Assembly: GCA_947650285.1 (NCBI GenBank)
Contig: CANTFL010000498.1
Location: forward strand, 160,119-224,118
DNA length: 64,000 nt
Reading direction: 5' to 3'
Source of the DNA: Hyaloperonospora brassicae
Lineage: Eukaryota; Oomycota; Peronosporomycetes; Peronosporales; Peronosporaceae
Translations under genes and position numbers: made by a program
Part shown: positions 32,073 through 33,389 of the stretch, piece by piece
Layout: the number at the start of each line of letters is the position of its first letter
Position numbering within the stretch: the first letter of the stretch is position 1
The notes under the pieces: generated by a model
The model's database searches: none
Seen by the model: only the letters and a program-made list of their open reading frames with translations
Told to the model about the DNA's origin: nothing

Positions 32073-33389
32073 ATGGCATCACCAACCCATGAGTCCTCGA
32101 CTCTCTCGTCTTACCTCGTCATCGATGTGGAGGTGGATTATGGTAGCGATACCGATATCTATATTGACGAGAGGACAATGTCCGACGCACCAGTGCAAGA
32201 GGCAGCGCCTCATATTGCACCAAATCCATTTGCCGAGCGTGGCGAAGCCAACGATCCATCGGCGCCGCATCAAAAACTTCTTGTGGGCGATGACATCATC
32301 ACTAATCCGCTCGATGAGCAACAGCAGTTGGCTATCCAACGAAAGGAGAGCGCTCAGCGCCGTATGCAGCTTTCTGCAACCTTCGAGGGTCGTCGTGGCT
32401 ATCTGTTCACACCACTCAATGTGGAAGAGCGTATACGCCAAACGACAGGTCGTTCTTTAGCAACGTGGGCCATTGGCACTGAGCCAACATCTTCTGATGA
32501 GGTGGAGAGTCGACAGGCACTTCGTGAGAGGTACCTGCAACCTTACATGACGACTCAGAGTCAATACAAATTGCGACTTGACACGCAAGCACGGGGTGCA
32601 CCGATTCCACCGATGAAGGGTATGCACATCCTCTTATTCGCAGGCGAATCTCAGGAGGAAGAAGACAACCCTTTTGCTCGCTGGGTGCATCGGAAACGAC
32701 ACCTCAGCAGCGTGTTAGCTTTCATAGCAAGTGCCGATGTGGCAGATGTTCGTCTCGAAGAAAAGCTTCGGTATGATTACGCCAATCTTAAGGCCAGAGG
32801 CCATTTGCGAACTCGCACACGCTATGCTCCGGCTGTGCCGATTGATGTGGGTGTTGGTCAAGCAGTACCCAACTACCCACCTGCCTCCACCACTATTGGT
32901 GAAAAGCGCTCTAGGTCGAGGGATGACCCCTGCCACGATGTTCAAAAACATCAACGGCGTATAGACAATCCTGCCGCAGGGGTGCCTCAAACTCCCACGA
33001 GTTCTCCGACTTTGGGTACCCTCGTTACTTCACCAGATACTGGTATCGACCCTGACGACGACGTCGTTTCAGGAGTCGCTCCACATGGACCTGGCAGTTC
33101 CCTTGCTCATCGAGCAGCGTCGGAGGTGGTCGGTATACCGAAGGAGGAGCATGATAAGGTGCTTCTCGAGCTTAGTGGTCTCCGTGATGCATTGGGTAAG
33201 ACCCGGAGTGCGTTTGACGCGATGCGAGCCCGTGTCCAGGCGTTGGATTTGGGCCAATCCCGGATGGATAATCATCTTGAACTCGTGATACGGATTCAGC
33301 AACGGGATGGCAAGGCCAACCTACCCAGCTCAAGCGCCTCCAAGTTCACGTGGGAAGGGTCTCGATACGGCTTAAGTAAGCCAACGTAG
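32073..33389 (+). CDS. A2 antisense ORF, intact (438 aa)
   Basis: An uninterrupted gene on the strand opposite gag-pol. ATG 32073 is in good context (ACCATGG), about 110 bases inside the 3' LTR. N-terminal acidic/Ser region; conserved core (GRRGYLF, TGRSLATWAI, MHILLFAGESQEEEDNPFAR, RWVHRKRHLSSV, SADVADVRL, LKARGHLRTRTRYAP); then a low-complexity Pro/Thr/Ser stretch with a basic patch (EKRSRSR); then a helical, probably coiled-coil C-terminus (EEHDKVLLELSGLRDALGKT, RARVQALDLGQSRMDNHLEL) and a Ser-rich tail. No known domain recognised. The C-terminal third is antisense to the pol linker and chromodomain. Its diverged A1 homologue aligns without gaps. Transcription would have to start in or near the 3' LTR, on the antisense strand. 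Confidence 0.75.
   Translation: MASPTHESSTLSSYLVIDVEVDYGSDTDIYIDERTMSDAPVQEAAPHIAPNPFAERGEANDPSAPHQKLLVGDDIITNPLDEQQQLAIQRKESAQRRMQLSATFEGRRGYLFTPLNVEERIRQTTGRSLATWAIGTEPTSSDEVESRQALRERYLQPYMTTQSQYKLRLDTQARGAPIPPMKGMHILLFAGESQEEEDNPFARWVHRKRHLSSVLAFIASADVADVRLEEKLRYDYANLKARGHLRTRTRYAPAVPIDVGVGQAVPNYPPASTTIGEKRSRSRDDPCHDVQKHQRRIDNPAAGVPQTPTSSPTLGTLVTSPDTGIDPDDDVVSGVAPHGPGSSLAHRAASEVVGIPKEEHDKVLLELSGLRDALGKTRSAFDAMRARVQALDLGQSRMDNHLELVIRIQQRDGKANLPSSSASKFTWEGSRYGLSKPT
32893..33110 (-). pseudogene. A2 chromodomain (one stop)
   Basis: Minus-strand frame HVERLLKRRRRQGRYQYLVK, a TAA where Trp is expected, then RGYPKSENSWEF. It is homologous to the A1 domain but diverged, and overlaps the antisense gene. 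Confidence 0.75.

What the first reader, a model, noticed from the sequence alone, without database searches (positions are those of the whole stretch)
32073..33389. Antisense protein gene inside a gypsy element shows signs of purifying selection
A2 carries an intact 438-codon ORF opposite pol, between the 3' LTR and integrase. The A1 homologue (12191-13507) has exactly the same number of codons and aligns without gaps although the 5' two thirds are strongly diverged (45 of the first 90 residues identical). Where protein is conserved, bases often are not. In GRSLATWAI, five of nine codons differ silently, including AGC/TCT and CTC/TTA. In the IITNP-DEQ block four codons differ silently. No sense gene lies opposite the N-terminal part. 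Antisense ORFs between pol and the 3' LTR are known in some plant gypsy elements (Grande, RIRE2, Retand), and antisense genes occur in deltaretroviruses. I know of none described for oomycete elements.
Basis: partly seen in the sequence, partly recalled or inferred. Interest (0 to 1): 0.87.

Follow-up and report, generated by a model that had tools for sequence, protein, structure and literature searches.

The report
Antisense gene in oomycete retrotransposons
A family of jumping genes in a downy mildew carries a second gene on the opposite DNA strand, partly overlapping the end of its main gene; sequence evidence says it encodes a real, conserved protein whose job is still unknown.

Summary
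The genome is very probably Hyaloperonospora brassicae. Two corrections. The window copies are damaged: A2 is out of frame after about codon 410, A1 has two in-frame stops; 28 of 75 oriented copies are open at 430-434 codons. And in 20 of those 28 pol runs further, so codons 275-433 lie opposite the pol tail, which carries a chromodomain; codons 1-274 are outside pol. There dN/dS is 0.25 (A1/A2) and 0.34-0.44 (four subfamily pairs; 0-8 of 5000 neutral simulations as low). Constraint is supported in the core, not shown for residues 1-110. Homologous proteins occur in Peronospora, Hyaloperonospora, Phytophthora ramorum and Albugo; the 11 tested still fit a chromodomain on the opposite strand. 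A second gypsy family in the window has the same layout without detectable homology. Predicted: globular domain plus coiled coil, no named family. I read it as a real accessory gene, probably a nuclear regulator; transcription and function are untested. Antisense genes at this place are known in plants and fungi: a new variant.

The parts
32073..33389 (+). antisense ORF (aORF) of element A2, 438 codons; codons 1 to ~410 in the family frame, the last 28 out of frame
32073..32894 (+). aORF codons 1-274, with no sense gene opposite in most intact relatives; holds the predicted globular domain (residues about 117-250)
   Evidence: pol ends opposite aORF nt 823 in 20 of 28 intact copies; AlphaFold2 model of homologue P0002
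32938..33090 (-). stretch opposite the aORF that corresponds to the pol chromodomain of relative L052 (in A2 the pol reading ends before it)
   Evidence: PF00385 E 5.1e-13 in L052 pol, placed and by arithmetic; transferred by gapless alignment
33296..33874 (-). A2 pol, integrase C-terminal part with SH3_Tf2-1; reading ends early here
34022..34882 (-). A2 pol piece with integrase H2C2 zinc finger
37715..38689 (-). A2 gag
   Evidence: PF03732 3.9e-13
31428..31963 (-). A2 3' LTR (TG..CA ends), with the polypurine tract between it and the aORF ATG
38737..39214 (-). A2 5' LTR (bounds from the match to A1's 3' LTR)
12191..13507 (-). aORF counterpart in element A1, stops at codons 91 and 164
22091..23600 (+). 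aORF region of element B1 (second antisense gene family; broken, 198 codons left open at 22817-23413)
49242..50750 (+). aORF region of element B2 (second family, broken; open part 49971-50567)

Best explanation
It is a genuine protein-coding accessory gene of a chromodomain-bearing Ty3/gypsy LTR retrotransposon family of oomycetes, encoded antisense to gag-pol between the 3' LTR and pol, with its last ~159 codons overlapping the pol tail including the chromodomain. Shown here: an open ~433-codon frame in many copies, fewer replacement than silent changes outside pol between subfamilies, and homologous proteins across oomycete genera. Inferred: an antisense mRNA starts in or next to the 3' LTR and is translated from the conserved ACACCATGG start. 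The protein (disordered N-terminus, globular domain about 117-250, linker, C-terminal coiled coil 357-409, all predicted) self-associates, works in the nucleus, and modulates the element's own expression or integration, as proposed for antisense proteins of plant Grande/Retand and shown for deltaretroviral HBZ (papers cited in the full report).
For: Length far beyond shuffles. 28 of 75 oriented copies open at 430-434 codons; 32 of 96 scored protein-level matches without a stop in the matched stretch (my count). dN/dS outside pol 0.25 for A1/A2; 0.34-0.44 for four subfamily pairs, with 2, 0, 8 and 0 of 5000 neutral simulations as low. In the core, fixed differences hold fewer replacements than polymorphism: 9N/15S versus 48N/23S, p 0.015. 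74 proteins at first search, 153 by profile, named from Peronospora, Hyaloperonospora, Phytophthora ramorum and Albugo laibachii, many of them partial. In the 11 homologues tested (of 122 listed) the linker best fits an opposite-strand chromodomain in one phase at the homologous place; with the other family's chromodomain as target, shuffles reach the score 0-1 of 300 times in the 5 proteins so tested. Start context AACACCATGGC in 60 of 75 copies. Structure model confident in domain and coiled coil. Intact aORF goes with an open pol tail, 13 of 28 against 6 of 45. A second family has the same layout.
Against: No transcript or peptide evidence. Omega over the whole tree of 28 copies, terminal branches included, is 0.735 (run, read). 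Within-subfamily pairs give 0.48-1.23. The fixed-versus-polymorphic test is not significant for codons 1-274 as a whole (p 0.11), for the overlap (p 0.07), or for residues 1-110 (p 1). In the overlap the aORF ratio (0.40-0.54) is not lower than neutral simulations allow (370-737 of 5000). One opposite-strand control frame also gives 0.40-0.49, though it is full of stops. Neutral simulations average 0.80-0.82 outside pol, not 1. The copies are the best search hits, which favours conserved ones. The window copy is itself frameshifted. Nuclear function rests on analogy; the bipartite basic pattern is in only 21 of 62 linkers (0.5 expected from shuffles), and in the two Phytophthora-like proteins printed (P0077, P0080) nowhere. 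Co-decay of aORF and pol can reflect copy age.
Confidence: 0.82

Rival explanations
1. The frame is a passive by-product: strong constraint on pol keeps an antisense frame open, and the rest is chance.
For: The last 159 codons do lie opposite pol, with low dS (0.08 against 0.24 for L009/L052), and part of the aORF linker's conservation is explained by the chromodomain opposite.
Against: Codons 1-274 have no sense gene opposite in most intact copies, yet show dN/dS 0.25-0.44, and proteins of other genera match there too.
Confidence: 0.05
2. The antisense strand matters mainly as RNA: a regulatory transcript (for instance feeding small RNAs) with the protein secondary or vestigial.
For: Antisense transcription without a coding function is described as widespread among retroviruses (PMC10186651, abstract and passages). 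47 of 75 oriented copies are not open at 430-434 codons (two of these, A2 and L049, are open at 438).
Against: RNA function alone does not make replacement changes rarer than silent ones or place homologous proteins in other genera.
Confidence: 0.08
3. A real protein gene, but one acting outside the nucleus or in particle assembly rather than as a regulator.
For: Position between pol and the 3' LTR is that of env-like genes (PMC7264820, passages); coiled coil and helical domain could serve assembly. No fold match points to DNA binding.
Against: No env or capsid family is among the Pfam families shown for 54 members (25 of 35 shown); orientation is antisense, unlike env; plant analogues favour the nucleus.
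Confidence: 0.2

Closest known systems
Antisense aORFs of plant Retand/Grande/RIRE2 Ty3-gypsy elements (TRP28, PF04195; Grande gene23)
   Same: Long ORF antisense to gag-pol between pol and the 3' LTR, in most copies and in distant species; suspected regulatory, nuclear role (PMC11963269: abstract, Background, Discussion and part 1 of one Results section; PMC7264820: passages and section 5).
   Different: PF04195 not among the Pfam families shown; the host element has a chromodomain, whereas Retand is a non-chromovirus lineage; pol ends about 0.9 kb from the 3' LTR against 2.9-6.6 kb; the ORF overlaps pol.
brtn, antisense gene of Boty-like elements of Botrytis cinerea (also Sclerotinia)
   Same: Antisense gene in a non-plant gypsy element (known here only through passages of PMC7264820 and PMC8365987; the original paper was not seen).
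   Different: Sequence relation not tested; fungi, not oomycetes.
HBZ and APH antisense proteins of deltaretroviruses
   Same: Antisense coding from the 3' end of a retroelement; HBZ has a bZIP (PMC10186651, abstract and passages).
   Different: No bZIP family among the Pfam families shown; promoter, splicing and function untested.
Chronos elements of Peronosporales (Ty3/gypsy with chromodomain and additional RNase H)
   Same: Oomycete Ty3/gypsy elements with a chromodomain at the end of pol (PMC5348765, passages and one section).
   Different: No additional RNase H family in the A2/A1 pieces scanned, which are broken; the word antisense does not occur in that paper's main text.

Membership tests
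Ty3/gypsy LTR retrotransposon with chromodomain | gag, integrase, SH3-like domain and chromodomain in pol, flanked by LTRs with TG..CA ends and polypurine tract | tested here: met
   gag and H2C2 in A2, rve, SH3_Tf2-1 and Chromo in relative L052, LTRs and PPT
Ty3/gypsy LTR retrotransposon with chromodomain | RT places it in a named clade | not tested
   no RT tree was made
plant aORF-3R (Retand/TRP28 kind) | long ORF antisense to pol beside the 3' LTR | tested here: met
   it also overlaps pol
plant aORF-3R (Retand/TRP28 kind) | TRP28 domain (PF04195) | tested here: not met
   54 members scanned, not among the 25 families shown of 35 at E <= 1; the genome search with the family says nothing because no control rang
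plant aORF-3R (Retand/TRP28 kind) | non-chromovirus host element | tested here: not met
   chromodomain in pol of L052
HBZ-type antisense protein | bZIP domain | tested here: not met
   no bZIP family among the 25 Pfam families shown of 35 for 54 members; a coiled coil is predicted
HBZ-type antisense protein | antisense promoter in the 3' LTR | not testable with these tools
   needs RNA data
Chronos | additional RNase H next to the native one | tested here: inconclusive
   none in the A2/A1 pieces scanned, but these copies are broken
antisense family B of this window | sequence homology between the two antisense proteins | tested here: not met
   hhalign of A3 and A6: probability 0.5, E 0.13 over 31 columns

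The most novel reading that the evidence does not exclude
An antisense gene locked onto the pol chromodomain in one fixed reading phase is an ancient, general feature of oomycete chromodomain gypsy elements, found in at least two families whose antisense proteins are now unrelated in sequence. Because in this phase the silent third positions of each gene face second positions of the other, the targeting domain of pol and the antisense regulator must evolve together, a built-in link between where the element inserts and how it is controlled.
Probability: 0.3. Interest if true: 0.8.

Novelty: new variant of a known kind. Interest (0 to 1): 0.64.

Why it matters
Antisense accessory genes of LTR retrotransposons are described mostly from flowering plants and in fungi, with unknown roles. 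A conserved protein family in oomycetes with signs of selection, overlapping a chromodomain on the other strand, shows that the arrangement arises or persists far outside plants. It gives many natural copies and several genera in which selection, antisense transcription and localisation can be tested. It also suggests that dozens of 'uncharacterized proteins' in downy mildew records are retroelement products rather than host genes.

Full report
WHAT IS THERE. The ORF at 32073-33389 (+) is open for 438 codons, 468 from stop to stop. It is antisense to element A2, whose gag (37715-38689), integrase zinc finger (34022-34882) and integrase C-terminal SH3-like domain (33296-33874) are on the minus strand, between LTRs at about 38737-39214 and 31428-31963. 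In 1000 dinucleotide shuffles of 31401-34400 the longest open frame in six frames was 289 codons.

WHOSE GENOME. The window is G000:C280, in a 100.6 Mb assembly. A protein named as Hyaloperonospora brassicae lies on a contig of 1,744,689 bases (P0106), the length of G000:C40 (L066). I therefore take the species to be H. brassicae, a downy mildew (Peronosporaceae).

CORRECTIONS. The genome has at least 96 scored protein-level matches (1991 first-look candidates); by my count of that list 32 of 96 have no stop in the matched stretch. I fetched 79 copies (L009-L087) and oriented 73 of them plus A1 and A2, 75 in all; 28 of 75 have 430-434 residues before the stop. The family protein is thus about 433 residues and ends differently from A2, which is out of frame after codon 410. 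P0006 of Peronospora matthiolae ends like A2. A1 has stops at codons 91 and 164. In 20 of the 28 intact copies the sense pol frame ends opposite aORF nt 823 and in 8 elsewhere, so codons 1-274 are outside pol and 275-433 are opposite it. The pol tail carries a chromodomain (PF00385, E 5.1e-13 in L052), opposite aORF codons of about 289-340 (by arithmetic).

SELECTION. A1 against A2, codons 1-272: dS 1.60, dN 0.40, ratio 0.25 (bootstrap 0.14-0.38); the other frames give 1.16, 1.19, 1.21, 1.35 and, for one opposite-strand frame with 13-15 stops, 0.40. Between subfamilies X (L009, L010, L018, L069) and Z (L052), codons 1-274: 0.38, 0.34, 0.44, 0.35, as low in 2, 0, 8 and 0 of 5000 neutral simulations, whose mean was 0.80-0.82. 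In the overlap the aORF frame gives 0.40, 0.44, 0.46, 0.54, which 370-737 of 5000 simulations reach, so nothing is shown there; the pol frame gives 0.63 and 0.68 in the two pairs tested, with low dS; the pol part beyond the aORF gives 0.044 and 0.025. Results less favourable: omega over the whole tree of 28 copies is 0.735, and within-subfamily pairs give 0.48-1.23 over the whole ORF. This is what neutral decay of inserted copies would give, but it is not proof of that. Fixed against polymorphic changes (4 X, 24 Z copies): whole ORF 42N/37S against 119N/50S in Z, p 0.010; codons 1-274 36/31 against 73/37, p 0.11; core 111-274 9/15 against 48/23, p 0.015; residues 1-110 27/16 against 25/14, p 1; overlap 6/6 against 46/13, p 0.07. 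I conclude that the core is under purifying selection and that the N-terminal 110 residues are not shown to be.

COPIES AND CONTEXT. The start context AACACCATGGC is present in 60 of 75 copies, and the polypurine-tract/LTR junction lies 95-97 nt before the ATG in the 49 of 75 copies where the pattern is found. An intact aORF goes with an open pol tail (13 of 28 against 6 of 45, Fisher p 0.0026; for the first 274 codons alone p 0.016); age of the copy may explain part of this. Pol frames of 1566-1646 codons without stops in the matched part exist in the genome.

RELATIVES. The first search gave 74 proteins, the profile search 153, of which 120 are listed, named from Peronospora destructor, P. 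matthiolae, P. effusa, H. arabidopsidis, H. brassicae, Phytophthora ramorum and Albugo laibachii (Albuginales); many are partial. I therefore asked from protein alone whether a homologue's linker could encode a chromodomain on the opposite strand. In the 11 proteins tested (of 122 listed) the best fit in phase 1 falls at the homologous place (16 residues before the PDTG motif), the phase seen in L052; phases 0 and 2 peak elsewhere. With the chromodomain of family B as target, whole-protein shuffles reach the observed score in 1, 0 and 0 of 300 for P0077, P0069 and P0080. The homologues resemble each other, so the 11 are not independent, and one (P0002) is nearly the same as L052. This supports the same antisense layout in Phytophthora and Albugo, but is inference.

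SECOND FAMILY. Elements B1 (about 21570-29443) and B2 (about 48721-56594) carry a broken antisense ORF (198 codons open). The genome has at least 150 matches (2429 candidates); 8 of the 150 listed have a stop in the matched part, by my count, and open frames of 492-540 codons are common. L090 gives a 534-residue protein with 12 related proteins at 32-87% identity, two of them named P. matthiolae. Its pol also has a chromodomain (1.2e-13), opposite aORF codons 353-370 for the motif used, in the same phase; seven B proteins fit at one homologous place with either chromodomain, P0135 weakly, and P0127 and P0131 beat all of 300 shuffles with the A chromodomain. Outside pol, L090 against B1 and B2 gives ratios of 0.34 and 0.24, without control frames, and each window copy has 3 stops in that frame. 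The two antisense proteins are not detectably homologous.

PROTEIN. AlphaFold2 of P0002 with 54 sequences: mean pLDDT 63.0, pTM 0.39; confident domain at about 117-250 and coiled coil at 357-409, most of the rest under 50. No Pfam family, solved relative or fold can be named. A bipartite basic pattern is in 21 of 62 linkers against 0.5 expected from shuffles.

HOW IT MAY WORK. Shown: an antisense, conserved protein-coding frame with selection in its core. Inferred: antisense mRNA from the 3' LTR region; a self-associating, probably nuclear protein that tunes the element's own expression or integration. This rests on analogy with Grande, whose product is nuclear, with Retand, and with HBZ (PMC7264820 passages and section 5, PMC11963269 named sections, PMC10186651 abstract and passages).

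KNOWN OR NEW. Antisense ORFs at this place are known in plants and in Boty of Botrytis and Sclerotinia (PMC7264820 section 5). Here the protein family, the host group and the overlap with a chromodomain differ. The listings of searches showed no report for oomycetes; the library lacks most subscription papers.

Noticed in passing
window 6310-14088 and 31428-39214: A1 and A2 look like products of an inversion: A1's 5' LTR pairs with A2's 3' LTR (96.6%), A1's 3' LTR with A2's 5' LTR (94.6%), while each element's own LTRs pair at 80-84% over most of their length; the 5-bp flanks TGGTT match exactly for the first pair and TCTGC/TCCGC in 4 of 5 for the second, read by eye.
   Followed up: partly
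window 22091-23600 and 49242-50750; L090: A second gypsy family with many copies has an antisense ORF of its own (492-540 codons open in many copies) over its chromodomain.
   Followed up: partly
P0003 (Peronospora destructor) against L009: 368 of 375 aligned residues identical between a P. destructor protein on a 6.1 kb contig and a copy of this genome: recent transfer between species or a contaminated assembly.
   Followed up: no
P0006 and window 33303-33389: The same out-of-frame C-terminus occurs in A2 and in a P. matthiolae protein, as expected where a conserved pol lies opposite, or an alternative end.
   Followed up: no
window 57739-59094: Tandem repeat of 279 nt (2.4 copies, 96% matches) at 57899-58570 with open frames on both strands; no Pfam family over its cut-off on the three frames scanned.
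   Followed up: no
window 399-1745 (+) and 2143-3345 (-): Likely host genes: an Oxidored_FMN protein (3.2e-76) and a helix-loop-helix protein (4.8e-8).
   Followed up: no
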